In this document: positions 52,049-64,000 of the stretch, in pieces
How the letters are laid out: each line of letters begins with the position of its first letter
Position numbering within the stretch: position 1 is the stretch's first letter
Origin: Microbacterium sp. KUDC0406
Lineage (GTDB): Bacteria > Actinomycetota > Actinomycetes > Actinomycetales > Microbacteriaceae
Assembly (NCBI RefSeq): GCF_021582875.1
Contig: NZ_CP091138.1
Span: 1,860,001-1,924,000 of the forward strand
DNA length: 64,000 bases
Reading direction: 5' to 3'
Notes under the pieces: model-generated
Seen by the model: the letters and a program-made list of their open reading frames with translations, nothing else
Databases searched by the model: none
Told to the model about the DNA's origin: nothing
Program-made: the position numbers and the translations under genes

Positions 52049-52852
52049 ATGGCACTGCAGCTCGCCCCTTCCTTCCGCGCCAGGCTCGCCGAGAGCGATC
52101 GCGCCCTCGTAGGCATGTGGGCGTGTTCCGGCTCGCCGCTGGTCACCGAGGTCGCCGCCGGCTCCGGCCTGGACTGGCTGCTCATCGACATGGAGCACTC
52201 CGCCAACACCCTGGACTCCGTGCTCGTGCAGCTGCAGGTCACGGCCGCCTACCCGATCACGCCGATCGTGCGGGCGCCGTTCAACGATGTCGTCGCCATC
52301 AAGCAGATCCTCGATCTCGGTGCGCAGAACGTGCTCGTTCCGATGGTGTCGTCCGCTGATGAGGCGCGCAGCGCGGTGCGCGCGGTGCGGTACCCGCCCG
52401 CCGGCGTGCGCGGTGTGGGCAGCGCGCTCGCGCGCAGCGCCCGCTGGAACCGCGTCGACGGCTACCTGCAGGATGCCGCGGAGCACACGTCCCTGATCGT
52501 GCAGATCGAGACCGCCGCCGGCGTGGATGCGGCCGCGGAGATCGCCGCCGTCGACGGCGTCGACGCCGTGTTCGTGGGACCCAGCGACCTGGCCGCATCG
52601 ATGGGTCATCTCGGACAGCAGACGCATCCGGAGGTGCTCGAGGCGGTCGCCCGCGCCTTCGCCGCGGTGCAGGACGCCGGGAAGCCGGTCGGCGTGAACG
52701 CCTTCGACCCGGTCGCTGCCGAGGAGTACATCGCACACGGCACGGACTTCATCGCGGTGGGCGCGGATGTCGCGCTGCTCGCCCGTGCGTCCGAGGCTCT
52801 GACGACGCGTTTCATCCCGGCATCCGACGGCGCGCAGCGCGCGAGCTACTGA
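52049..52852 (+). CDS. hpaI: 4-hydroxy-2-oxoheptanedioate aldolase (HpaI/HpcH)
   Basis: A 267-aa class II pyruvate aldolase; it splits 4-hydroxy-2-oxoheptanedioate into pyruvate and succinic semialdehyde, ending the pathway. Family motifs: WLLIDMEHSANTLDSVLVQL (catalytic His), PIVRAPFNDVVAIKQILDLG (Arg), NVLVPMVSSADEARSAV, metal Glu in LIVQIETAAGV, and metal Asp in FVGPSDLAASMG. Start ATG 52049 with TCCGGAG upstream. It is 81 bp after hpaH. Its last 7 bases overlap the 3' end of the convergent DUF916 gene. Confidence 0.94.
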   Translation: MALQLAPSFRARLAESDRALVGMWACSGSPLVTEVAAGSGLDWLLIDMEHSANTLDSVLVQLQVTAAYPITPIVRAPFNDVVAIKQILDLGAQNVLVPMVSSADEARSAVRAVRYPPAGVRGVGSALARSARWNRVDGYLQDAAEHTSLIVQIETAAGVDAAAEIAAVDGVDAVFVGPSDLAASMGHLGQQTHPEVLEAVARAFAAVQDAGKPVGVNAFDPVAAEEYIAHGTDFIAVGADVALLARASEALTTRFIPASDGAQRASY

Positions 52853-53873
52853 GCGGGCTTCTCCGCCTCGCGTCGCCCTTCCTCGCGGGCACGCTCCAGC
52901 TGCTCCTGCAGACTCCGGCGACGACGGCGACGGTCCACGACCGTCAGCACGATGAGGAGGACGGCGATCCCGAGCGCGATCAGCTGAGGCCACGGCCACG
53001 CGGGCACGGTCGTCTCGACAGAGCTGGATCCCGTTCCCGCATCGCCGTCGACCACGGATTCCGCGTCCGCCGTCACACGCACGCTGAGCGGACCGGTCGG
53101 CCACACGCCGGTGAGGCGCACAGCTCCCTTGCGCTGCTCTCCCGGGGCGAGCTCCTCGATCTTCGCGGCGGTCTGCGCCTGCGACAGCGTGCCGAACGGC
53201 CCCTCGACCGACACCGTGGGAGTCACGGCGACGCGTGTGTTGCCGGTGTTCTCGATCGTGTACTCGACGTCCGCCGTCCCGGGCTGGAACGGATTCCACG
53301 ACATGGTGTACCGGGCGTTCACCGCGGGCGCCACCTCGGTGCGGTACTCACCGGTGACCCGGGTCATCACCCGGAAGCCGACACGGCTCGTGACGTTCAC
53401 CGCGGTGCCGCCCGCGTCAGAACCCTGTGACTTGATCGAGGCGGCGACGCCGGCGGGGTGGTCCCCGGGGTCGCGTCCTTCGGCACCGTGACGGTGAACG
53501 GCACCACCACCGCGCCGCCAGCGGGCACCGTGACCGAGTCGGGCAGATCGATCCACAGCCCCGCGTCCTTCGACGGCGTGCCCTCCGGCAGGATGTTGAA
53601 GCGGCCGGTGTCGGTGAAGTATCCGTCGGCAGCGATCAGCTGGAACGTGGTCTCCGCAGCGCCGTAGTTGCGCACCTCGAGATGATCGACGGCGCTCGCA
53701 CCGGGCGCGAGCTCCAGCTCTGCCCAGGAACGGCCGTCCGCCGCCGTTGCCGACGCCGGTCGCACCGACCACGAGACCCCGTCATCGGCCGCGACCGCCG
53801 GCACGGCGGCACCGCCGATCAGGACGATCGCCGCGCCGACCAGCGCCAGCATGCGCAACAGCTTCACTCTCAC
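52846..53873 (-). CDS. DUF916-type membrane-anchored cell-surface protein (apparent frameshift)
   Basis: A 342-aa exported protein after repair. Signal peptide VRVKLLRMLALVGAAIVLIGGAAVPAVAAD; the N-terminal beta domain VSWSVRPASATAADGRSWAE with LELAPGASAVDHLEVRNYGA resembles DUF916, now called the WxL-interacting protein peptidoglycan-binding domain. A second Ig-like domain follows, then one membrane helix (LIALGIAVLLIVLTVV) and a basic cytosolic tail (DRRRRRRSLQEQLERAREEG). The frame breaks at CCCC 53463-53466 (DATPG to DHPAGVAASIKSQG), fixed by one base. GTG 53873 has GGAGAGG upstream. A WxL-like protein is encoded 7 kb upstream in the same direction. Confidence 0.83.
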
Positions 53874-53969
53874 CGGGTGTCTCGCCTCTCCGGGCGCATG
53901 CACCCCTGCTCTTCGGTCATCTCAATCATAGGAACGTGCCCGCGGTGGCCGGCGCCCGCCCGGCGCGGC

Positions 53970-56684
53970 TCAGAGCGCCGGGTAGGACTGTTCGACGTCG
54001 GCGAAGCCGGCGACGGCCGCCGTGACGACGCCCGCGCCGATCGATGCCGCACGCGTGGCGAACGCCGTCGTGGCGGAGTGACCGGGATGGATCCCCGTGA
54101 AGGTCTTCTCGCCGTACGCGGTCGCGAGCGTGATCGTGACCGGGCGGTCGCAGCGGTTCTCGGCCGACACGTACAGGTGCACCTTGCCCGCCAGTGAGCG
54201 CGGCGTCACCTGCAGCGTCACCGGCGCTCCGCAGTCGATCTCGATGCGCGCGGAGTGCCCGTGTCCGTCCAGTGCGAACTGGAGCGTGAGCGGCGACGTG
54301 CTGACGACGGTCACTCCGTCGTCGGCCTCACCGGCGGCGACGGCCTGGACGTCCGCGAACGTCACGCGCGCGCTCGTCTGCGTGCGGCTGGGGTCGGACA
54401 GCGCGACGGCCAGCAGGTCGCCGTCGCGGTGCGCGGCGACCGAGCAGGGCCCGCTGACGGTGATCCCGTGCGACGGTGCGGCACCGGCGGGCGATGCGGC
54501 GAAGAAGTTCGCCAGCGTCAGGCCGTTCCCGCCATCCGCGACCACCTGCGCCGCCTCGTCGTTCGCGAGCACGGTCACCGACGGCGTCTGCGACTGCGCG
54601 GACGTGGTGCCCTCATCTGCGCCGGGGAGTATCAGGTACGCATAACCGCCGCTGTCGGGCTTCGCGCCGTGCCGGTGCGTGATGGTGAGGTAGTCCCGCG
54701 TCCGGGGCTCCGCGTCACCGCCGGTGTCGGCACCGGAGTTGATGGTCTGCCAGTCGCCCGTGCGACGGACCGCCTGCACGTCGACAGAGCCGCTCACGTT
54801 CTCGCCCTCGAGGAAGACGTATCCGCCGTGCCCCGCGATGTGCACGGCCTTGGTCGCCGCGACGGCGGCGTCTCCCGGGGCGAGCGTGCGCCGAGCCCCG
54901 TCCGCCGTGATCGCGGGCAGCCTCCCGGCCGCGAAGGAGCGGTTCTCGACGGTGGTGAACACCTCGTGATCGGTGGTCCCTGCGATCGCCGCGCCGAGGC
55001 AGACGATTCCGTCGTCGAGGAAGAACCAGGACTTCCGGGCGCTGAGCGTCCTGTTGTGGTTCAGGTGGTCCATCCCCTGGATCCCCCAGCGCCCGTCCAG
55101 CTCCAGCCCGCCGGCGAACGCCTGGAACGCCCGCGGGATGCCGGTGCCGTCGGCGGCGCCGTTCGCGTGGGGCTCGGCCGTGACCGTGGTCCCCGGCAGC
55201 CGGTACGGGTCGACCGTGGGCCAGAAGTCGGCGCTGAACTGGCCGGGATCGGCGGGCGTGTAGACGAAGGTCAGCCCGTCGCCCTGGTACCAGCCCAGGT
55301 TGTTCTCCTTGTTGCCCCACTCGTACCGGCCGATCCGCTTCGACGAGATGTTCGCGACCGCGCTGAACGCCGGACGGTGGTGCACCAGGCGGTCCTGGTC
55401 GCCGAACGCCTTCGTGTACACCGGGGCGGGCGCCGGCTCGATCGCGTCGTCGCCGAGCACGGAGGTCACCAGCAGCGACTTCGCCACCGTCTGCGTCGGC
55501 AGCCCGTACAGGGTCTGGTCCGTGCAGCGCTGCAGCCAGCCCTTCACGAGCGACAGGTACCGGGTGCGATACGGCTCGCCGGCACCGGGGGCCAGCAGCA
55601 GGATGGCGGTGAGCGCCGCCGCGCCGTCGACGTAGTCCGGCGCTTTCTGGCGCGACACGGCCCGTCCGCGCACGGCGTCCATCATCCGGCCGTTCCAGAT
55701 GAACGGTGCGTACGCCGCCTCGACCGCATCGAGGACCACGGCCTTCTTCGGGTCGGTGACATCCCACTCGCTGCCGCCGAGCAGACCCAGGATCTCGGCG
55801 ATGCCGCCGAGCGTGACCACGCCGTATGTGCCGACGTAGGGCAGGTAGGTGTGCTGCACGAACGACCCGTCGGTGTAGAACCCGTCACCGCTGGTGACGT
55901 ATCCGAACACGCTGTTCCTCCCCGCCCCCACCGTGTCGCTGAGCGCGTCACGCGCCAGCGCGATCTCGTCCGGCCGGCCGTCCAGCGCCCCGCGCAGCAT
56001 GCACGAGAGGGCCTTGTCGGTGCGGTTCGCGCCGGTCTCAGCGGAGCCCGTGCCGCGACCGCGCCAGTTCGGGTTCGGAGTGAAGTAGCGGGCGGCCGCC
56101 ATCAGCGCGGTGCGCACGTCGGCGGGCACGGCCTCGTGCAGCAGCACCAGGATGTCGGCGGCTTTTCGTGGCACGCCGATCTCCCAGAACCACCAGTTGC
56201 CCACGGGGGACTTCCCCGCGACGTACACGTTCGCCGAGATGAAGGTGAGCGCGGCGACGAGGTCGGATGCCAGAGCTGTATCGCCGTACTGCGCGCAGCC
56301 CGCCGTCGAGTACGCGAGAGCGAGGCTGAACATCCGGTCGAAGGTGAGGCCCATGTTCCCGGACAGCGTCGTCCCGGTGACACCGGTGATCGGCACATCC
56401 GCCCAGATTCCGGGCGCGGCGACGGGGCGGACCATCGAGTCCCAGACCGTCTGTGCCTCGGCGCTCATCTGGCTCAGCGCCTCGGCGAGCTCGGGAACGG
56501 ATGCGGCGCTGCCATCGCCGACGAGCATGATCCGGCGACGCTGGATGAGCGCCGCGAGCGGATCCTCGGCGGTCGCGGAGAACGCGCTTCGGGTGCTCGC
56601 GGCGGCGGGCTGGGTGCTCACGGCGACCAGCGCGCCGGCGCCGAGCAGGGTGAGGAAGGATCGGCGGGGCAGTTCCAGTGACAT
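53970..56684 (-). CDS. Polysaccharide lyase family 8 (hyaluronate/chondroitin/xanthan lyase-like), Tat-exported
   Basis: A 904-aa secreted lyase. Twin-arginine signal PRRSFLTLLGAGALVAV with AAAS cleavage region. The alpha toroid holds the PL8 catalytic residues: Asn in NWWFWEIGVPRKAADIL, and His and Tyr in DGSFVQHTYLPYVGTYG; Arg-rich AVRGRAVSR nearby. Beta-sandwich domains follow (GRYEWGNKENNLGWYQGDG, GIQGMDHLNHNRTLSARKSW). The last ~85 residues (from LAGKVHLYVSAENRCDRPVT) form a module also found at the ends of the GH31 and phosphoesterase proteins in this locus. It cleaves an acidic polysaccharide by beta-elimination. Which one is not determinable here. Confidence 0.9.
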   Translation of the reverse strand: MSLELPRRSFLTLLGAGALVAVSTQPAAASTRSAFSATAEDPLAALIQRRRIMLVGDGSAASVPELAEALSQMSAEAQTVWDSMVRPVAAPGIWADVPITGVTGTTLSGNMGLTFDRMFSLALAYSTAGCAQYGDTALASDLVAALTFISANVYVAGKSPVGNWWFWEIGVPRKAADILVLLHEAVPADVRTALMAAARYFTPNPNWRGRGTGSAETGANRTDKALSCMLRGALDGRPDEIALARDALSDTVGAGRNSVFGYVTSGDGFYTDGSFVQHTYLPYVGTYGVVTLGGIAEILGLLGGSEWDVTDPKKAVVLDAVEAAYAPFIWNGRMMDAVRGRAVSRQKAPDYVDGAAALTAILLLAPGAGEPYRTRYLSLVKGWLQRCTDQTLYGLPTQTVAKSLLVTSVLGDDAIEPAPAPVYTKAFGDQDRLVHHRPAFSAVANISSKRIGRYEWGNKENNLGWYQGDGLTFVYTPADPGQFSADFWPTVDPYRLPGTTVTAEPHANGAADGTGIPRAFQAFAGGLELDGRWGIQGMDHLNHNRTLSARKSWFFLDDGIVCLGAAIAGTTDHEVFTTVENRSFAAGRLPAITADGARRTLAPGDAAVAATKAVHIAGHGGYVFLEGENVSGSVDVQAVRRTGDWQTINSGADTGGDAEPRTRDYLTITHRHGAKPDSGGYAYLILPGADEGTTSAQSQTPSVTVLANDEAAQVVADGGNGLTLANFFAASPAGAAPSHGITVSGPCSVAAHRDGDLLAVALSDPSRTQTSARVTFADVQAVAAGEADDGVTVVSTSPLTLQFALDGHGHSARIEIDCGAPVTLQVTPRSLAGKVHLYVSAENRCDRPVTITLATAYGEKTFTGIHPGHSATTAFATRAASIGAGVVTAAVAGFADVEQSYPAL

Positions 56685-56765
56685 CTTCGGCGGCTCCTGA
56701 CAGGTGGGCGGATTCTTCAGAGGTGGGGCAGACGGGGTCTGCGGAGGTGGGGCGATCGGCGAAGC

Positions 56766-56797
56766 GGCCGGGAGGGGAGGAGCTCCTCCCTCCCGGC
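56766..56797. terminator. Strong hairpin after the GH31 gene
   Basis: GGCCGGGAGGGGAGGAGC pairs with GCTCCTCCCTCCCGGCC (one bulge) with virtually no loop. It lies 7 bp after the GH31 stop and 82 bp before the PL8 start. Confidence 0.7.
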
Positions 56798-56803
56798 CCT
56801 CCG

Positions 56804-59800
56804 TCATCCGATGCCTTCGTACGCGACGGTGCGCTGCGCCGTCACGTCCTCTCCGTCGGACTTCTTGACGACGGTGACGGTGACCTCGCCCGCGGGGATC
56901 GAGGCCTTGCGAGTCGCGACGGCCTCGATCGCGCTCTTGCCCGGGGCCACGGCCTTGATCGTCTTGCCGCCGTACGGCGTCTCGACGGTGACGTCCACCG
57001 GCACCTGCTCGTCGTTGACGACGCGCACCTGGACGTAGGCCTTTCCGCCCATCATCCGCGGTGCCGCCTCCGCCGAGAAGGCCACGGCGGGCTCCTCGTC
57101 GGCGCAGTGCAGCCGGGCGTCGCCCCACACGCCGTGGGCGCCGTTGATCGAGCCGGGCGCCTCGACGATCAGGTCGAGGTAGGTCGCCCCGGTCAGGTCG
57201 ACATCCACCTTCTCGGTCGGGAACCCGGCCTGGAACGTGGTGCCCTGGTAGCGGTTCACGCCGTCGACGTCGACCTTGAAGATCACCGATCCGTTGAAGC
57301 CGTCCTCCAGGCCGGCGTCGGAGGTGAAGCGGGTGCATTCGCCGCCGAGGTAGTACCGCACCTTCGACTGCGCGTGCACGCCGAGACCCTTCTCATAGGT
57401 CTTCTTCAGCTCCGGCGTCGTGTTGATCACCAGGGGCACGTCCGGCGAGGTCGCGGTGTCCTTGTTGGCCACGTCCTTGCCGATCACACCCCAGCCGGTG
57501 CTCGCCGAGACCCAGTCGAGGTCGGAGACCCACGGCTCACCGCTCGGCGCCTCGGGCATGTCGAGCGTCACGGGGCGGACGTCGAACAGCTTCGCCGTGG
57601 TGCCCACGGGGAAGGTGATCGAGCGCAGCTCCTTGGTCGGGATGAGCGGGGCGACGTTCGCGTACACCTGGTACGTGTAGGTCGGATACTCATACCCGTC
57701 CGGGTTGGCCTTGTTGTTGCGCCCCTTGCTCGCGACGGCGACCGCGGCATCCTTCAGCGGCCCGGACGACTGGATGAGCCAATTCGGGAAGTAGAAGGTC
57801 TGCTTCGCGGTCGTGCCATCCGCGTAGGTGATGGTGACCTCGGGGTTCACGCCCGCGCCCGTCGCCGACGACCCGAGGAACGCGAGGTGCGTGCCCTTGC
57901 CGCTGAGCGCGACCGTCTGGCCGTTCATCGACATCGAGTTCGGGGTTCCGGCCGCGGCCGACGGCCACTGGAACGTGAGGGTGTCGTCACCGCGCTCGAC
58001 CTCGAGCGGCTCCCCCGCGCGGGCACCGGCGGCGGCGAGTGCATCCTCCGAGAAGGATGCTCCTCCGCCGTCGAAGTTCCCGGCATCCTTGGTCGCCACC
58101 GACGTGATCGACACCGCGTCGAAGGCGGCGGCGATGCTGCCGTAGGCGACGTCGATCCGGTTCGCGCCGGTGAGGTCGCGCTCAGTCCCCGAGCCGTCCA
58201 GGAAGGTCGCGGCCGCACGGAGCTGCTGCGCGCCCGCGGCGGAGCCCGTTCCCGGCGAGACGACGAAGGTCGCCGTCGCCGTCGCGCCAGGCGCCACGGA
58301 ACCGGCCGCCGTGCCCTCGGACGAGACGAGCGTCCAGCCCTCCGGCAGCACCGGCTCGATGCGCACATCGTCCTTGGCCTTGGTGCCGGTGTTGTGGAAC
58401 GTCGCCTTCATGGTGGTCTGCTCGCCCTGGAACACCTGCTGCTCCAGTGCCACGCTCAGGTAGGCACGGTGCGAGTCGGAGTCCTTGCCGCCGACGGCGC
58501 TGGTGCCCGCGAGGGTCACCGTCTCGGACGAGCCGGATGCCACGGTGCCGGCCTTCACCCGCACGATCCCGCCGCGCGCATCCGCGTCGTAGAACCAGCC
58601 GGTCTCCTGCGCGTCGAACGCCTCCGCGTCGGCCGCACGCTCGAGGACGGTCTCGCCGGCCCGCACCGATTCCGGCGCCGATCCGGTGTGCACGTCGAGC
58701 AGGTAGGGCCTGGCATCCGCCTTGCCCTGGTATGCGCCGTCGCGATCGCCGATCGTGACCACCACGTCGCCGCCGTCCTGCTCCGGGGCGGTGACCGCGA
58801 ACTCCTGCTGCGAAACCGAGCCGCTCTGGTACGCGCGGGTGACCTCGTCGTCCTCGTAGAGGTCGAACGAGCCGTCGCCCTTCGGGTACACGTCGAGGGT
58901 GATCGGCGAGTCCTCGGCGACGAGCGAGGCGTTGCGCGCGGCCGCGCCCTGCGGGATCACGGCGCCGGCACGCACGAACAGCGGCAGGGTGTCCAGCGGA
59001 GCGGCGTACCCGTCGAGCACACGGCCTCCGTCGTAGACGTCGCCGGTCCAGTAGTCCACCCACTGACCCTCGGGCAGGTAGATGCCGTTGCGCACGTCGG
59101 AGTCCGTGAACACCGGGGCGACGAGGAAGTCCGTCCCGAGCAGGAACTCGTTGTTCGCCTCGGCTCCGTACGAGTACGGGTCGTCCGGGTACTCCAGAGC
59201 GAGGGAGCGCATCATCGGGGTCCCGGAGGAGTGCGAGCCCGCGGCCAGGGTGTAGATGTACGGCATCAGGCGCTGGCGCAGCTGCAGGTACTTCCGGTTG
59301 ATCTCGGTCGCCTCGTCGCCGTACAGCCATGGGCGCTTGTCGGTGCTCGCCCAGCCGCTCATGGAGTACAGCGCCGGGGCGAAGGCCTTCCACTGCAGAT
59401 CGCGGACGTAGCTCTCGGCGGAGCCGCCGAAGATGCCGTCCACGTCGCCGGTGGTGAACGCGAGACCGGAGTTGCCCGCGCCGGTCAGCGCGGAGACCTG
59501 CCAGCGCACGGCGTCGAGGTTGCCGGAGTGGTCGCCGGTCCACTGCATGCCGCACCGCTGCGCTCCCGCCCAGCCCTCGACCATGAGCGCGGTGCCGCGG
59601 GCATCCGAGTACTGCTCGATGCCGTCGTGCGCGGCCTCGCAGCCGGTCAGCGCGAGGCGGTAGCCGGAGCCCACCCAGGCGACGTCGAGCTTGCGCAGCC
59701 GGACGCCGGCCTCACCGACCTCGTACTCCTGCTGGTCCAGCGAGCGCTGGGTCCACAGACCGGTCTTCAGGTCGGTCTGGTCCTCGATCGCCGCGATGGT

Positions 59801-60898
59801 CTCCGGAAGCTCCTGGTACTCGCAGCCGTAGCCGTCGTTGACCAGCATCCACCCGCCCGGCATGTCGTTCTCGACGAAGTCCTTCGCGATCTCGAGAGCC
59901 TGCGGGGTCTTCAGCTTCGTCGGGTCCTTGCTGCCGGTGTATGTCGGGCTGGAGCGGTTGTAGCAGTCCGCATCGCCGTACTCCAGCGCGTACACCGGCG
60001 GCATGATCGGACGTCCGGTCAGCTTCGTGTAGCCGTCCAGCGACTGCTTGTAGTCGCCCACGAAGTAGTACGCGTCGAAGCGCTTCTCCTGGTGCGTCGT
60101 CGTGCCGCCCGCGAAGTCGTAGGTGCCCTTCGCGAACGTGTCGCGGAGCACGCCGTAGCCCTCGGAGGACATGTAGTAGGGAACGGCATTGGGGTAGCCG
60201 TCGTCGTCCCAGTCCGTGTTCTGGGCGACGTTGATCGTCGCTCCGGTGTGGATCGAGCGCCCGTTCTGCATGCCGCCGCCGAGGAACTGCTCGCCGTCCT
60301 GGGGCTTCAGCCGCTGGGTGGCCGCGGTCGTGGAGAAGCTGATCGGCGCCGACTCCTCCCAGACGACCGTGCCGTCGGCGCGGGTGAGCGTCATCCTGCT
60401 GGTGGCCCTGTCGATCTTCAGCACGACCTTCGAGGTGGAGATCGAGATCGTGTCGCCGTCCTCGACGGTGAGGTCCGCGGCGTCGAAGTCGTCGGTGCCG
60501 ACCACGATGTTCGCCGTGCGGGCGGCGTCGCCCTGCGGCGTGTTGGCGGGGTCGGTGAACGATCCGCTCGGGTCGGCCTCGACCCGCAGCGTGGTCGCGT
60601 CGAGGAACGTCACCCGTGCGGCGCCGTTCTCCGCGGTGAGCGTGACCGCGTTCCCGGACTTCTCGACGTCGCTGATTCCGCCGATGGACCCGCCGGTCGC
60701 CGGTGCGACGGCCGGCGTCACCGGTTTGGGGACGATCGGCGTCGGCGCGGCGCTCGACGCCGCCGCCTGCGCGGGCTCGGTCGCCGCGGGGCCGAACCCC
60801 AGGCCGGCGGCGACGACGGCGGATGCGGCGAGCGCGGCGAGCGCGCATCTGACGGGCCCTGCCCATCGGTTCTCCGCTGTGACTGTCTTCATCTTCAT
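56804..60898 (-). CDS. Secreted GH31 glycoside hydrolase with NPCBM and shared C-terminal module
   Basis: A 1364-aa exoenzyme. Signal peptide MKMKTVTAENRWAGPVRCAL ending in PAQAAASS. A GH31 N-terminal beta domain is followed by the barrel: RPIMPPVYALEYGDADCYNR, the nucleophile Asp in RLRKLDVAWVGSGY (~res 404), the acid/base Asp in QWTGDHSGNLDAV (~res 455), and the C-terminal beta domain with FVRAGAVIPQG. Then NPDQ-like/NEW-type beta domains, an NPCBM domain (ASTGWGVIGKDVANKDTATS, KGLGVHAQSKVRYYLGGECT), and the ~90-residue terminal module from GGKAYVQVRVVNDEQVPVDV. The DVAW nucleophile context differs from alpha-glucosidases (DMNE), so a transglycosylase or unusual alpha-glycan specificity is possible. 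Unknown substrate. Confidence 0.9.
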   Translation of the reverse strand: MKMKTVTAENRWAGPVRCALAALAASAVVAAGLGFGPAATEPAQAAASSAAPTPIVPKPVTPAVAPATGGSIGGISDVEKSGNAVTLTAENGAARVTFLDATTLRVEADPSGSFTDPANTPQGDAARTANIVVGTDDFDAADLTVEDGDTISISTSKVVLKIDRATSRMTLTRADGTVVWEESAPISFSTTAATQRLKPQDGEQFLGGGMQNGRSIHTGATINVAQNTDWDDDGYPNAVPYYMSSEGYGVLRDTFAKGTYDFAGGTTTHQEKRFDAYYFVGDYKQSLDGYTKLTGRPIMPPVYALEYGDADCYNRSSPTYTGSKDPTKLKTPQALEIAKDFVENDMPGGWMLVNDGYGCEYQELPETIAAIEDQTDLKTGLWTQRSLDQQEYEVGEAGVRLRKLDVAWVGSGYRLALTGCEAAHDGIEQYSDARGTALMVEGWAGAQRCGMQWTGDHSGNLDAVRWQVSALTGAGNSGLAFTTGDVDGIFGGSAESYVRDLQWKAFAPALYSMSGWASTDKRPWLYGDEATEINRKYLQLRQRLMPYIYTLAAGSHSSGTPMMRSLALEYPDDPYSYGAEANNEFLLGTDFLVAPVFTDSDVRNGIYLPEGQWVDYWTGDVYDGGRVLDGYAAPLDTLPLFVRAGAVIPQGAAARNASLVAEDSPITLDVYPKGDGSFDLYEDDEVTRAYQSGSVSQQEFAVTAPEQDGGDVVVTIGDRDGAYQGKADARPYLLDVHTGSAPESVRAGETVLERAADAEAFDAQETGWFYDADARGGIVRVKAGTVASGSSETVTLAGTSAVGGKDSDSHRAYLSVALEQQVFQGEQTTMKATFHNTGTKAKDDVRIEPVLPEGWTLVSSEGTAAGSVAPGATATATFVVSPGTGSAAGAQQLRAAATFLDGSGTERDLTGANRIDVAYGSIAAAFDAVSITSVATKDAGNFDGGGASFSEDALAAAGARAGEPLEVERGDDTLTFQWPSAAAGTPNSMSMNGQTVALSGKGTHLAFLGSSATGAGVNPEVTITYADGTTAKQTFYFPNWLIQSSGPLKDAAVAVASKGRNNKANPDGYEYPTYTYQVYANVAPLIPTKELRSITFPVGTTAKLFDVRPVTLDMPEAPSGEPWVSDLDWVSASTGWGVIGKDVANKDTATSPDVPLVINTTPELKKTYEKGLGVHAQSKVRYYLGGECTRFTSDAGLEDGFNGSVIFKVDVDGVNRYQGTTFQAGFPTEKVDVDLTGATYLDLIVEAPGSINGAHGVWGDARLHCADEEPAVAFSAEAAPRMMGGKAYVQVRVVNDEQVPVDVTVETPYGGKTIKAVAPGKSAIEAVATRKASIPAGEVTVTVVKKSDGEDVTAQRTVAYEGIG

Positions 60899-60938
60899 CG
60901 ATGCTCTCTCGTGTCGGAATGCGAAGTGCTGTCTGGGG

Positions 60939-60973
60939 CACGGAGTCCCGGGATCGCGTCCCGGGACTCCGTG
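60939..60973. terminator. Perfect 15-bp stem hairpin after the WxL-like gene
   Basis: CACGGAGTCCCGGGA (60939-60953), loop TCGCG, TCCCGGGACTCCGTG (60959-60973). It lies 5 bp after the WxL-like stop (60978) and 41 bp before the GH31 start. Confidence 0.75.
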
Positions 60974-60977
60974 GGTC

Positions 60978-61613
60978 TCACTCGAAGAGCGAGAGGGTGA
61001 GGTTGGCGGTGTAGGTGCCGGGTGCCACGTCGGCCGGAGTGCGCAGCGCCAGGTTCGCGGTGGCGCTGAACACACCCTCCGAGGCGACCTCCGCCGAGGA
61101 GAACGTCGAGAACAGCAGCTCGCGGTCCACCAGGCCGACGGCGTTCGGGCCGGAGTCCAGCACGGTCTCCACGGGGTCGCCCTCGAACACCAGCCCGTTC
61201 TCGTCGCCCTGCACCAGTGCGGGAGTCCAGCCGAGGTGATCCGCGGTGATCGCCTCCTGACCGTCCGAGCCGGTGAAGCCCGACGAGGTGCCCAGCACGT
61301 ACCAGGCGGCGTCGCCGGCCACTTCGTCGGCGCTGCGGGTGTCGGTGACGGTGACGGTCGGCAGCGTGCCGGTGAACTGCCGCACCGCGGCATCCGATCC
61401 GTTCTCGCTGAGGGTGGTGGAGGTGCCCGCGACGGACAGCGCGAGCACGCCGGGCTGCTCGATCTCGGGGATCTCCACCGAGACGTCGACGGAGCCCTCT
61501 CCGTGGGAGGTGTCCTCCTCGGCCGCGCTGGCGACGCTCGCGGCGGCGCCGGTGACGAGCAGGGCGGCGAATGCCGCGGTGGAGTACCGCAGCAGGCGAT
61601 TGTTCTTTCTCAT
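60978..61613 (-). CDS. WxL-like secreted surface protein
   Basis: A 211-aa exported protein: signal peptide MRKNNRLLRYSTAAFAALLV to ASAAEE, then one beta-sandwich domain. Segments such as VDVSVEIPEIEQPGVLALSV, TVTVTDTRSADEVAGDAAWY with GFTGSDGQEAITADHLGWTP, and the C-terminal PADVAPGTYTANLTLSLF resemble WxL-domain proteins (DTR...W.V...F), which attach non-covalently to Gram-positive peptidoglycan. The two exact WxL motifs are not present, so the call is by pattern. ATG 61613 has GGAAAGGAAG upstream. A DUF916 protein in the same locus is the usual partner. Confidence 0.75.
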   Translation of the reverse strand: MRKNNRLLRYSTAAFAALLVTGAAASVASAAEEDTSHGEGSVDVSVEIPEIEQPGVLALSVAGTSTTLSENGSDAAVRQFTGTLPTVTVTDTRSADEVAGDAAWYVLGTSSGFTGSDGQEAITADHLGWTPALVQGDENGLVFEGDPVETVLDSGPNAVGLVDRELLFSTFSSAEVASEGVFSATANLALRTPADVAPGTYTANLTLSLFE

Positions 61614-61650
61614 TTCCGTTCTTCCTTTCCGATGAAGGGGTGGTGTGGTG

Positions 61651-61680
61651 CCGGGACGCCGCTCGGTCGCGGCGCCCCGG
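61651..61680. terminator. Hairpin after the metallophosphoesterase gene
   Basis: CCGGGACGCCG (61651-61661) pairs with CGGCGCCCCGG (61670-61680), 10 of 11. It lies 8 bp after the stop at 61688. All three large genes of this locus are followed by such a hairpin within 8 bp of the stop. Confidence 0.65.
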
Positions 61681-61687
61681 ACGTGGG

Positions 61688-64000
61688 TCAGCCGCAGGTG
61701 AGCGCGTCGTAGCCGGTGGTGGTGCGCTCGGTGTCTCCGTCCCTCTCGCCGCTGACGTCCAGCTCGCCGGCGGGGATCGCCTTCTGCCGGCTGTTGAACG
61801 ACGTGCTGACGCTCCTGCCGGGTGCGACACCGGCGAACGCCTTCGTGCCCAGCGCGGACTCGATCGTCACGTCGGCCGGTGCGTCCCCGCGGTTCTCGAC
61901 CGAGGCGTACACGTACGCCTTGCCGCCGATGCAGCGCGCGGTGGCTGCCGCGTGCAGTTCGTGCGGCGGCTCGACGTCGGATGCCGGGACCGGGACGTCG
62001 ATGTGCTTGATCTCGGTGGGACCTGCGGCGCCGAACGAGTACACGGTCATGCGGACCCGGTCGTCGTACAGGGCCGCGCGTACGCCGATCGGGTCGGCAC
62101 CGCCGATCCCCGCCTCTCCCCAGTCGCCGCTGGGTCCGTACTGCGTCGTCACGGCACCGGTGTTGACCATGGTCAGTCCCTGCGCGTCCGCGGGATCGAT
62201 GCGGTGCTCGACGGACCAGTCGTTCAGCTGCGGCGACCAGTGCGTGTGGCTCGTGACCATGATCACGTTCGGGTTCTCCGACATGAGCCGGGTGAACCGT
62301 TCGGCGTCGGCGCCGTAGTCGTTCCGGTTGAAGGTGATGTATGTGCCGGACACCGAGTCGGCCAGCGGATGGTGCGTGAACAGCAGCACGGGCTGGTTCT
62401 GTCCCTTCCAGTAGGCCAGACGTTCGCGCAGCCACCCGAACTGCTCATCGGAGTAGTCGACGAACGGCCCGCTTCCGGTCTGCTTCGCGTAGTCGTACGC
62501 CTCGCTTCCGACCCACAGCAGTGGCAGCCGGCCGTCGACGAGGACCTCGCCCCACAGCCCGCCCTGCCCGCCGACCGTCCGCATGCCGGCCTGGTCGAGG
62601 AAGCGGTTGCGGAACACCTCCGAACCGTCGTTGCCGTAGTACTCGTGATTGCCGATCGTCGAGATCGACGTCGGGTAGGAGTCGCCGCCTCCGGCCGTGA
62701 ACGCCGCCTTGTAGGCGGCGTAGTTGGCTGTCGACCCGGCGGAGACGAGGTCGCCGTTGGCGACGATGACGTTCGCCTTCTCGGCCATCCCGCGGAATCC
62801 CGGGAGCACCTGCTCGCTCAGCCGCGCATTCGAGCCCTGGATGTCGCTGAAGATGTCCACGAGTGCGTCGGCCGTCGCATCCTCCGCGAGTGGCGCGAGC
62901 GGGCGCACCAGCAGCACGTTGTCGACCATCCATGATCCGGCTGCGTCCGGCGTCGTGAATCCGAACTCCAGCGTGACGGAGCGGGCGCCCGACGGCACGG
63001 ACAGAGGAAGCCGCAGCTGTGCGGACTCCTGGTCGCCCGCGGCGTGCTCGAACAGGACGGCGGACTCCCCGCTGTCGAAGCGTGCGGTCAGTGTCGCGCT
63101 CTGTGCCGCGCCCCGCACGCGGAGGTGGCTGTCCACGCGCACCTCGAGTTCGTCGCCGGCGCTGACCGGGATCCGCTCCGAGGTCAGCTCGCCGTCGAAC
63201 GCGCCGGTCGACGACTCCGCGACGGCCAGCCTGCCGGTGGCGCGGGTGAACGCCTGACGCCGGTCCGTGCCATAGGCGTCGACCACGTCGTCCCGGGTCG
63301 AGATCGCCCAGTCGCCGCCGGCCGTCCAGTCATCGGCGCCGTCGAAGCCGCCGAACCAGACGATCGGCTCGGTCGTGGCGATGCCGGCCGATTCTCCGCT
63401 GAGCACGGAGATGCTCAGCGCGATCGGGGCGACTCCGTCTCCGGAGATCGCCAGGCGGAGGAACCCCTCCTGCGTGCCGGCCGGGATCGTCACATCGAAG
63501 GTTGTCGTGCCGTCGGCCGCCGCCGCGGGGATGCCGCTGACTGCTGCGCCGTCGAGCTCGGCGGTCACCTGCTGTCCTGCGCGCAGGCCCCCGAGCTTCA
63601 CCCGGGTCGTGCCGCCGGGAGCTGCGACGGGCTTCGTCCCCGAGAGCACGAGGGGGTCACCGGCGCGGGAGCAGACTCGGAGATCTGGACGTTGTCGATC
63701 ATCCAGAACCAGTTGTTCGAGCTCTGCAGGTACGACCAGCCCACCTGCACCGTGTCCGTGCCGGCCGGGACGTCCACCGTGAGGTCCACCGACTCGTCGA
63801 GGCGGTTCGTGGCGAAGCTCTGCACGACCACCGGATCGCCGTCGTCGAACCGCGCGACGAGCTGAGCGGTCTGCGGGGCCTGCCCCTGCTTGTAGTGGCT
63901 GTCGAACCGGACGCGCACGGCGCCGGACTTCTCGATCAGGTCCGTCTGCGGCGCCCACAGCACCGAGTCGAACCTGCCGGTCGCCGGACGGTTGAGGTCG
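61688..64000 (-). CDS. Secreted metallophosphoesterase with duplicated beta-sandwich domains (partial, apparent frameshift)
   Basis: The N-terminus lies beyond base 64000; at least ~770 residues are visible. Two similar jelly-roll domains come first (FDSVLWAPQTDLIEKSGAVR...WFWMIDNVQIS and FDGELTSERIPVSAGDELEV...SWMVDNVLLV), with a Gly/Ala linker domain between. Next a calcineurin-like phosphoesterase: DIFSDIQGSN, VIVANGDLV, STIGNHEYYGND, LLFTHHPLAD, VTSHTHWSP (metal ligands D, D, N/H, H, H). The last ~80 residues, from IGGKAYVYASVENRGDAPAD, are the module shared with the GH31 and PL8 proteins. The frame breaks at GGGGG 63652-63656, fixed by one base. It may act on phosphorylated surface glycans or nucleotides (inference). 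Confidence 0.87.
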   Translation of the reverse strand, partial: RPQPSGDRQVRLGAVGAADGPDREVRRRARPVRQPLQAGAGPADRSARRAVRRRRSGGRAELRHEPPRRVGGPHGGRPGRHGHGAGGLVVPAELEQLVLDDRQRPDLRVCSRAGDPLVLSGTKPVAAPGGTTRVKLGGLRAGQQVTAELDGAAVSGIPAAAADGTTTFDVTIPAGTQEGFLRLAISGDGVAPIALSISVLSGESAGIATTEPIVWFGGFDGADDWTAGGDWAISTRDDVVDAYGTDRRQAFTRATGRLAVAESSTGAFDGELTSERIPVSAGDELEVRVDSHLRVRGAAQSATLTARFDSGESAVLFEHAAGDQESAQLRLPLSVPSGARSVTLEFGFTTPDAAGSWMVDNVLLVRPLAPLAEDATADALVDIFSDIQGSNARLSEQVLPGFRGMAEKANVIVANGDLVSAGSTANYAAYKAAFTAGGGDSYPTSISTIGNHEYYGNDGSEVFRNRFLDQAGMRTVGGQGGLWGEVLVDGRLPLLWVGSEAYDYAKQTGSGPFVDYSDEQFGWLRERLAYWKGQNQPVLLFTHHPLADSVSGTYITFNRNDYGADAERFTRLMSENPNVIMVTSHTHWSPQLNDWSVEHRIDPADAQGLTMVNTGAVTTQYGPSGDWGEAGIGGADPIGVRAALYDDRVRMTVYSFGAAGPTEIKHIDVPVPASDVEPPHELHAAATARCIGGKAYVYASVENRGDAPADVTIESALGTKAFAGVAPGRSVSTSFNSRQKAIPAGELDVSGERDGDTERTTTGYDALTCG

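What the first reader, a model, noticed from the sequence alone, without database searches (positions are those of the whole stretch)
53970..64000. An ~80-residue C-terminal module shared by three unrelated secreted enzymes
The PL8 lyase, GH31 glycosidase and metallophosphoesterase end in clearly homologous sequences: LAGKVHLYVSAENRCDRPVT / GGKAYVQVRVVNDEQVPVDV / IGGKAYVYASVENRGDAPAD, then YGEKTFTGIHPG / YGGKTIKAVAPG / LGTKAFAGVAPG, then ATRAASIGAG / ATRKASIPAG / NSRQKAIPAG, closing with Y-P-A-L, Y-E-G-I-G and Y-D-A-L-T-C-G. The catalytic domains are unrelated, so the module was recruited three times. It could be a cell-wall or glycan-binding or sorting domain specific to this surface system. 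I do not recognise it as a named domain.
Basis: seen in the sequence. Interest (0 to 1): 0.78.

Follow-up and report, generated by a model that had tools for sequence, protein, structure and literature searches.

The report
C-terminal surface-docking domain of actinobacterial exoenzymes
Many unrelated secreted sugar-degrading enzymes of Microbacterium and its relatives end in the same small unnamed domain, which tends to occur with genes for a cell-surface complex and probably holds the enzymes on the cell surface.

Summary
The three C-termini are homologous (E 1e-11 to 1e-15); two more copies lie just beyond the window. The five copies found in this 3.6-Mb genome sit in one same-strand cluster: beta-helix protein, GH20, metallophosphoesterase, W, GH31, PL8, D. 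W is a small WxL-like and D a DUF916/WxLIP-like membrane protein. Pfam and NCBIfam do not describe the module. It occurs in 69 of 149 genomes of the genus (Microbacterium), up to 26 copies each, and in 25 of 109 sampled genera of the order. 186 of 188 distinct copies end within two residues of the stop codon; two cysteines are both present or both absent in 186 of 186. Of 43 genomes with full-length W, 42 have the module; 27 have the module without it. Orthologues of the PL8 (10 of 10) and GH31 (8 of 8) in genomes without full-length W lack the module; one GH31 carries a sortase-type anchor instead. Best reading: a C-terminal retention or docking domain serving an actinobacterial relative of the csc/WxL surface complex. 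Direct binding to W or D is inferred; no structure could be predicted.

The parts
53970..54236 (-). Module copy of the PL8 lyase (residues about 817-904, no Cys pair)
   Evidence: orthologues without the module stop at residue 814-816 plus 1-3 aa
53970..56684 (-). PL8 polysaccharide lyase with C-terminal module
   Evidence: Lyase_8_N E 2.5e-77, Lyase_8 1.6e-66, Lyase_8_C 2.1e-15
56804..57103 (-). Module copy of the GH31 enzyme (residues about 1266-1364, no Cys pair)
   Evidence: 7 of 8 orthologues end 0-1 aa after residue 1265
56804..60898 (-). GH31 glycosidase with NPCBM_assoc, NPCBM and C-terminal module
   Evidence: Pfam
60978..61613 (-). W: small secreted WxL-like protein (211 aa); D-x-R then W-x-V, ends LTLSLFE
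   Evidence: no PF13731 match
61688..61966 (-). Module copy of the metallophosphoesterase, with Cys pair (RC...CG)
61688..64000 (-). Secreted metallophosphoesterase with C-terminal module; gene continues to L007:2297 (equals window coordinate 64296); reading frame broken near 63.6 kb
   Evidence: Metallophos E 1.5e-8; frames
52846..53903 (-). D: DUF916/WxLIP-like protein with C-terminal hydrophobic helix and Arg-rich tail; reading frame broken near 53.4-53.5 kb
   Evidence: PF06030 E 0.0019, 18.7 bits, below the cut-off of 27.3; intact homologues match PF06030, 11 of 11; own two halves found by the D profile

Best explanation
The module (called M here) is a small C-terminal domain, probably Ig-like and in most copies clamped by an N-to-C disulfide, that keeps secreted enzymes on the outside of the actinobacterial cell. 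It most likely docks onto a surface complex built from W (small WxL-like protein), D (DUF916/WxLIP-like protein held in the membrane by a C-terminal helix) and, in some loci, a tiny anchored peptide. The enzyme is exported by a signal peptide, folds, and its last 85-95 residues plug into the complex, so that many different enzymes are displayed together. Shown here: homology, C-terminal lock, cysteine pairing, operon-like linkage to W and D, genome-level co-occurrence, clean addition of M to pre-existing PL8 and GH31 enzymes, and one case in which a sortase-type anchor stands in its place. Inferred: the Ig-like fold, the disulfide, surface retention itself, and the physical contact with W or D.
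For: (1) 186 of 188 distinct modules end 0-2 aa from the stop. (2) M in 42 of the 43 genomes with full-length W (E below 1e-50, a cut I set at a gap in the list, 2e-53 to 1e-35), of 149 genomes of the genus, own included; M without full-length W in 27; neither in 79; Fisher p 1.6e-17, not corrected for phylogeny. (3) Of 63 full-length W genes, 28 have a copied M place directly upstream on the same strand within 1 kb, 20 more have an M within 10 kb, and 40 have a D within 1 kb. (4) Mean M matches per M-positive genome 6.9 with full-length W (n=42), 1.5 without (n=27). (5) All 10 orthologues of the PL8 (72-78% identity) lack M, 9 of them ending 1-3 aa after the alignment stops at residue 814-816; their genomes have no W or D hit at E 1e-5. 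(6) 8 of 8 GH31 orthologues (63-66%) lack M; 7 end 0-1 aa after residue 1265 where M starts; the eighth (L273) has Ig-like linkers and an LAATG-TM-Arg anchor. (7) One M copy is itself followed by a Gly-rich linker and LATTG-TM-Arg tail (L217). (8) D relatives match PF06030 WxLIP in 11 of 11; W has D-x-R and a first W-x-V/L/I motif in 34 of 34 and a second motif 97-118 residues on, against about 106 between the motifs of small WxL proteins (PMC9772566, section read). (9) Cys pair both 157, neither 29, single 0. (10) M within a locus are more alike than M of other loci of the same genome (0.464, 206 pairs; 0.393, 51 pairs; permutation p 0.0055 in the four multi-locus genomes); M and adjacent W identities correlate (42 pairs, r 0.46, permutation p 0.0005).
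Against: 27 of 69 M-positive genomes lack full-length W, and 16 lack any W or D hit; a recheck of these 16 with a larger profile kept 15, with mostly weaker-scoring copies. So M can exist without W and D. Conversely any W-like hit occurs in 18 and any D hit in 20 M-negative genomes. Only 14 of 52 named M loci show W or D within the fetched flanks; 13 of 63 full-length W have no copied M within 50 kb. No binding, localisation or structure data: the predictor was busy in all 20 attempts. M shows no profile similarity to W or D, so it is not a WxL domain. Co-occurrence is not corrected for phylogeny and could partly reflect exoenzyme-rich lifestyles; no control domain was tested. The within-locus likeness and the M-W correlation may come from tandem duplication and common descent; for 89 of 123 modules the nearest relative lies in another genome.
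Confidence: 0.55

Rival explanations
1. M binds a cell-wall polymer (peptidoglycan or a wall glycan) directly. W and D are companions that bind the wall on their own, without contacting M.
For: M persists without a W or D hit in 15-16 of 149 genomes of the genus; WxL and WxLIP domains are themselves proposed to bind peptidoglycan (PMC10599100, abstract and two sections read); sortase-type anchors replace or follow M in one case each.
Against: Copy number is higher with full-length W (6.9 against 1.5); M genes lie directly upstream of W in 42 distinct pairs from several genera; within-locus likeness of M suggests a locus-specific partner.
Confidence: 0.22
2. M is a generic C-terminal Ig-like cap that aids folding or protease resistance of secreted enzymes; its link with W/D reflects only that both are common in exoenzyme-rich strains.
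For: Weak sub-threshold likeness to PF05506 PLipase_C_C, a C-terminal domain of another secreted enzyme family (31 of 94 members, best E 1.2e-4). Most module genes are not next to W or D.
Against: PL8 and GH31 orthologues at 63-78% identity lack the cap; operon-like order of M, W and D; a sortase-type anchor takes its place in one GH31 orthologue.
Confidence: 0.13
3. M is a carbohydrate-binding module for the substrate.
For: It sits mostly on polysaccharide-degrading enzymes; 8 of 94 members give sub-threshold CBM_35 matches (best E 0.0015).
Against: The same module ends proteins with unrelated substrates, including phosphoesterases, PNGase-like and sugar-dehydrogenase-like proteins; it is locked to the C-terminus, unlike typical CBMs (recalled).
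Confidence: 0.06
4. M is a sorting signal read by a dedicated export or processing machine and cleaved or modified, as T9SS C-terminal domains are in Bacteroidota (recalled).
For: Strict C-terminal position and a frequent ending, SCG in 49 of 186.
Against: The proteins already have signal peptides (83 of 97 by a crude rule); a folded domain with a disulfide fits a mature domain better. A processing enzyme was not searched for.
Confidence: 0.04

Closest known systems
csc / WxL cell-surface clusters of Lactobacillus, Enterococcus and Listeria (CscA-D; small WxL, large WxL, WxLIP)
   Same: A DUF916/WxLIP-like protein with C-terminal transmembrane helix (D = CscA-like), a small secreted WxL-like protein (W = CscB-like) and, after 6 of 17 D genes examined, a short anchored protein like CscD; proposed role in a surface complex for polysaccharide use (PMC1534035, abstract, domain and discussion sections read).
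   Different: In csc clusters the large partners end in a WxL2 domain of 130-140 residues; here the enzymes end in M, which has no detectable relation to W. W misses the Pfam WxL model, and its second motif lacks the Trp. Hosts are actinobacteria; over 91% of known WxL sequences are from Firmicutes (PMC9772566, section read).
Large WxL-type proteins of the same genus (L237, L238, L239)
   Same: W-like domain ending 2 aa before the C-terminus, plus a D gene in the same locus.
   Different: They use the W domain itself as C-terminal domain; their genomes (G128, G130, G083) had no M match.
PF05506 PLipase_C_C
   Same: C-terminal domain of secreted enzymes; weak sub-threshold profile similarity.
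   Different: Best E 1.2e-4, 31 of 94 members; the window's MPP copy scores 14.2 bits against a cut-off of 24.4; no PF05506 match at E 1e-5 in 60 genomes across the phylum.
Cellulosome dockerin/cohesin
   Same: Analogy only: a small terminal module on many different enzymes and a proposed surface partner.
   Different: No dockerin match in the five own proteins or pieces; one of 34 W gives a chance-level Cohesin match (E 0.018). A scaffold with repeated cohesins was not searched for.
Sortase (LPxTG/LAxTG) wall anchors
   Same: C-terminal means of surface display; found in place of M in a GH31 orthologue and after M in one protein.
   Different: M has no sorting motif, transmembrane helix or basic tail and would be non-covalent.

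Membership tests
csc/WxL surface cluster | DUF916 (PF06030) protein with C-terminal transmembrane helix | tested here: met
   11 of 11 intact D relatives match PF06030 at E 0.01 or better, best 33 bits over cut-off 27.3; the other members' bits were not shown. The own broken copy reaches only 18.7 bits. Hydrophobic stretch plus Arg-rich tail by eye.
csc/WxL surface cluster | Small WxL protein: Pfam WxL (PF13731) match | tested here: not met
   WxL is not among the 5 families matched by any of 34 W at E 1; own genome no match.
csc/WxL surface cluster | Small WxL protein: Asp-x-Arg before first W-x-L, second W-x-L about 106 residues on | tested here: inconclusive
   D-x-R...W-x-V/L/I in 34 of 34; second motif is T-L/M-S/T-L in 34 of 34, without Trp (0 of 34), 97-118 residues on.
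csc/WxL surface cluster | Large protein with C-terminal WxL domain | tested here: not met
   In the own cluster the large proteins end in M, unrelated to W by profile comparison. Large W-ended proteins occur in three other genomes looked at.
csc/WxL surface cluster | CscD: very short LPxTG-anchored protein | tested here: inconclusive
   After 6 of 17 D genes with enough downstream sequence, 5 of them with an LPxTG-like motif; a motif scan of the window, L007 and L008 printed none.
PF05506 PLipase_C_C | Score above curated cut-off | tested here: not met
   Window MPP copy 14.2 bits against 24.4; best E among 94 members 1.2e-4.
Any Pfam-A or NCBIfam family for M | Match at curated cut-off over the module | tested here: not met
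   Full lists for the window proteins show none over the module. For the 94-member set only weak matches are shown (25 of 57 Pfam and 25 of 46 NCBIfam families listed; best E shown 1.2e-4 and 0.0014).
Dockerin | Pfam dockerin match | tested here: not met
   None in the full lists for the five own proteins or pieces.
Ig-like fold (M) | Beta-sandwich in predicted or solved structure | not tested

The most novel reading that the evidence does not exclude
Actinomycetales have their own non-covalent surface-display system, comparable in purpose to a cellulosome. In some species 10-26 or more exoenzymes each carry a one-piece C-terminal plug (M) that docks into a WxL-like protein. That protein is held by a DUF916 membrane stalk and, in some loci, by an anchored peptide whose VxVxVxIxP-like strand is shared with the N-terminus of W and may complete its beta-sandwich.
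Probability: 0.33. Interest if true: 0.87.

Novelty: new variant of a known kind. Interest (0 to 1): 0.72.

Why it matters
It gives a sequence handle on how Gram-positive soil and plant actinobacteria may keep polysaccharide-degrading enzymes at the cell, and it names a testable partner set (M, W, D). It would extend the little-understood csc/WxL systems, described mainly from Bacilli, to actinobacteria and tie them directly to catabolic enzymes. M could also serve as a tag for surface display, and it marks hundreds of secreted proteins (332 matches in the 149 genomes, summed) whose last 90 residues are unannotated.

Tried and rejected
M as a WxL domain: rejected, no profile similarity to W (8 columns aligned) or D (22 columns, probability 1.5%). 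M as a known Pfam or NCBIfam domain: rejected for the window copies; nothing convincing in the lists for 94 members. M as substrate-binding module: disfavoured because the same module ends proteins with unrelated substrates. PF05506 kinship: only sub-threshold; a search for PF05506 members to compare profiles found none in 60 genomes, so no profile comparison was made. One protein search with the PL8 module as region found only the query itself; a more consensus-like module found 38. PDB search with one module gave one chance hit; with the profile only weak hits. No small anchored peptide was seen in the own cluster. The W profile found no PDB chain; the D profile weakly found EfmWxLIP1 (9i25, 9i1y; E 0.16-0.18).

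Biases to keep in mind: the 188 modules come from loci fetched around module hits, mostly the best-scoring ones. The 52 named loci were picked by the peptide TRCVAGKVV, so conservation of that stretch in A7 and the Cys count (88 both, 3 neither, 1 single, the last apparently a frameshifted copy) are biased; the less biased Cys count is. The genome search scored at most 34, 12 or 13 candidates per genome, so copy numbers are lower bounds. In one search I copied 113 M places and 48 D places from printed lists that were themselves cut off, and not every printed row, so distances are conservative. 84 of the 98 full-length M proteins were scanned with Pfam (25 of 35 and 25 of 32 families shown); 14 were left out. 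Those loci were chosen by me for dense clusters of strong hits.
Full report
OBSERVATION. The PL8, GH31 and metallophosphoesterase genes (all minus strand) end in homologous sequences. BLASTP E-values are 7e-12, 1e-12 and 6e-15, scores of the ends are 21-23 SD above shuffles, and no other part of the proteins is convincingly alike. Pfam finds Lyase_8 domains, GH31 with NPCBM domains, and Metallophos in the front parts, and nothing over the module. NCBIfam gives nothing there either.

OWN GENOME. The window lies in a one-contig genome of 3,611,693 bases (96% complete). A profile of the three modules finds five strong copies (E 3e-45 to 4e-26) and one chance-level hit (E 0.65). The five lie in one 13.5-kb stretch. 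The two extra ones end a GH20 enzyme with F5/8C domains (in broken frames) and an NPCBM/beta-helix protein. The same-strand order is beta-helix, GH20, MPP, W, GH31, PL8, D, with gaps of 59-169 bp for the start codons I took, so it looks like an operon. W (60978-61613) is a secreted 211-aa protein; D (52846-53903) has an N-terminal DUF916-like part and a C-terminal hydrophobic helix. The W profile has one match and the D profile two matches (the halves of the one broken gene) in this genome. The module of the MPP is closest to that of the neighbouring GH20 (63%).

SPREAD. Module matches, own genome included: 69 of 149 genomes of the genus (E 1e-3, up to 26 per genome); 52 of 398 of the family, 18 of 85 genera (E 1e-4); 65 of 396 of the order, 25 of 109 genera (E 0.01); 6 of 396 of the phylum sample, all six in the own family (E 1e-4). 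Named carriers include Microbacterium, Agromyces, Rathayibacter, Promicromonospora, Cellulomonas, Actinotalea, Tessaracoccus, a Naasia and a Brachybacterium MAG, Micromonospora and Actinoplanes.

ANATOMY. Of 188 distinct modules in the fetched loci, 186 end 0-2 residues before the stop codon; the two exceptions are one with an Ig-like tail (L112) and one that appears to be read through a frameshift (L133). In the named set 92 of 94 do; the other two are a contig end and what looks like the same frameshifted copy. Among 27 copies in genomes without W or D hits, 25 do; the others are one with a masked stretch (L208) and one with a sortase-type tail (L217). A cysteine near the module's start and one near its end are both present in 157, both absent in 29 and single in none. 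This all-or-none pattern is what a disulfide predicts; two of the three copies in the window belong to the cysteine-free class. Conserved positions in the 94-member set are R, G, K, N, G, G (91-93 of 94) and an Arg found in 94 of 94; the RCVAGK stretch is biased by selection. A profile search of the PDB gives only weak hits to designed Ig-like proteins, and Pfam gives scattered weak matches, PF05506 most often (31 of 94).

HOST PROTEINS. 84 of 98 full-length carriers were scanned. GH43 was found in 49; others include GH59, GH53, GH95, GH92, GH127, an arabinofuranosidase, PNGaseA-like, metallophosphoesterases, NAGPA, ThuA and sugar-dehydrogenase-like proteins. No single substrate unites them. 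83 of 97 carriers of at least 600 aa have a signal-peptide-like start by a crude rule; the others look like wrongly chosen starts.

LINKAGE. The own W and D have homologues beside module genes in many lineages, in the recurring same-strand order module, W, D; 42 distinct adjacent module-W pairs have a median gap of 126.5 bp. Genome-wide in 149 genomes of the genus, full-length W (E below 1e-50, my cut at a gap in the list) occurs in 43, and 42 of these have the module; the exception (G123) is an 88% complete assembly. 27 genomes have the module but no full-length W, and 79 have neither. Fisher p is 1.6e-17, uncorrected for phylogeny. For any W-like hit the four counts (both, module only, W only, neither) are 53, 16, 18 and 62; for any D hit 53, 16, 20 and 60. 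Of 63 full-length W genes, 28 have a copied module place within 1 kb upstream on the same strand, 20 more have one within 10 kb, 2 within 50 kb, 13 none within 50 kb; 40 have D within 1 kb. And most module genes are not beside W: 14 of 52 named loci show W or D in the fetched flanks.

NATURAL EXPERIMENTS. PL8 orthologues at 72-78% identity occur in 10 other genomes of the genus sample, none with a W or D hit. Nine stop 1-3 residues after the alignment ends at residue 814-816, where the own module begins. The tenth (L250) aligns in one piece to residue 670; its last 49 residues resemble the own residues before the module by eye, and it ends there without a module. GH31 orthologues at 63-66% occur in 8 of the 134 other genomes searched. 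Seven end 0-1 residues after residue 1265, where the module begins. The eighth (L273) continues with Ig-like linkers and an LAATG-transmembrane-Arg tail, a sortase-type wall anchor. None of the 8 genomes has full-length W; two (G034, G041) have W-like domains in long frames and D. The module was thus most simply added as a unit to pre-existing enzymes, and in one lineage a wall anchor stands in the same place. One divergent module is itself followed by a Gly-rich linker and LATTG anchor (L217). Both facts point to the cell surface.

WHAT W AND D ARE. Intact D relatives match Pfam WxLIP_PGBD (PF06030) in 11 of 11, best 33 bits over a 27.3 cut-off. W has no Pfam WxL match, but carries D-x-R before a first W-x-V/L/I motif in 34 of 34 and a second T-L/M-x-L motif 97-118 residues later. 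Small WxL proteins have D-x-R-G (PMC1534035, section read) and about 106 residues between motifs (PMC9772566, section read). UniRef names some W homologues 'WxL domain-containing protein'; most of those that bear a name in the list are 'hypothetical protein'. W-like domains also end large proteins next to D in three genomes without the module (L237-L239), as in csc clusters. After 6 of 17 D genes lies a short protein with a transmembrane tail, 5 of the 6 with an LPxTG-like motif, like CscD. Five of the six carry a VxVxVxIxP-like stretch also seen near the start of mature W; the stretch was itself one of the two search criteria, but four of the five found by their LPxTG-like motif have it. PMC10599100 (abstract and two sections read) reports an AlphaFold2 prediction in which a WxLIP strand completes the WxL sandwich, so strand donation is a plausible linkage mode here.

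MECHANISM. Most likely the enzymes are secreted and held at the surface by the module through the W-D complex. Surface retention is supported by anchor replacement and by the company of surface proteins. Direct docking to W or D is inferred from linkage, co-occurrence, the likeness of modules within a locus and M-W correlation, all open to other readings.

NOVELTY. Searches for WxL with Microbacterium (3 papers, one read in passages), WxL domain with Actinobacteria and glycoside hydrolase (1 paper on honeybee lactobacilli and bifidobacteria, listing only), DUF916 with Microbacteriaceae (none) and csc gene names (7 papers, one read in part) showed no description of this module. One search (WxL with Rathayibacter, Agromyces, Arthrobacter) listed 8 of 244 papers, none of the 8 with WxL, so it settles nothing. 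One paper (PMC12537917, passages read) notes DUF916 and metallophosphatase neighbours of another domain in a study that used a Microbacterium protein. The library holds open-licence papers only.

Noticed in passing
window 53.4-53.5 kb, 63.6 kb, 41.0 kb, 42.9 kb; L007:3883-4377: Several genes in and beside the cluster are split between frames (D, metallophosphoesterase, GH20, two FAD-monooxygenase-like genes, the last two judged by eye). Frameshifts across unrelated genes suggest assembly errors rather than decay of this cluster.
   Followed up: partly
L114, L130 (same place as L012), L135, L147, L150, L198, downstream of D: Short anchored CscD-like proteins (LPxTG-like in all but L147), most with a VxVxVxIxP-like stretch resembling the start of mature W; in L012/L130 it reads on from D. 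Could be a donated beta-strand that tethers W to the wall.
   Followed up: partly
L237, L238, L239: Large proteins (open frames 701-962 aa) with a C-terminal W-like domain next to a D gene in genomes without a module match: csc-like clusters in Microbacterium.
   Followed up: partly
L273 C-terminus: GH31 orthologue in which a sortase-type LAATG anchor stands in place of the module.
   Followed up: yes
L217: A divergent module followed by a Gly-rich linker and LATTG wall anchor, in a genome without W or D hits.
   Followed up: partly
L206-L232: Module copies, mostly weaker-scoring, in same-genus genomes without W or D hits: what they bind is unexplained.
   Followed up: partly
L260 (G000:C1:3503411-3505705): A second PL8 paralogue in the same genome (34% identity) without the module.
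   Followed up: no
window about 56640-56684 (-): The PL8 starts MSLELPRRSFLTLLGAGAL..., a twin-arginine-like signal by eye, so at least this enzyme may leave by the Tat route rather than Sec.
   Followed up: no
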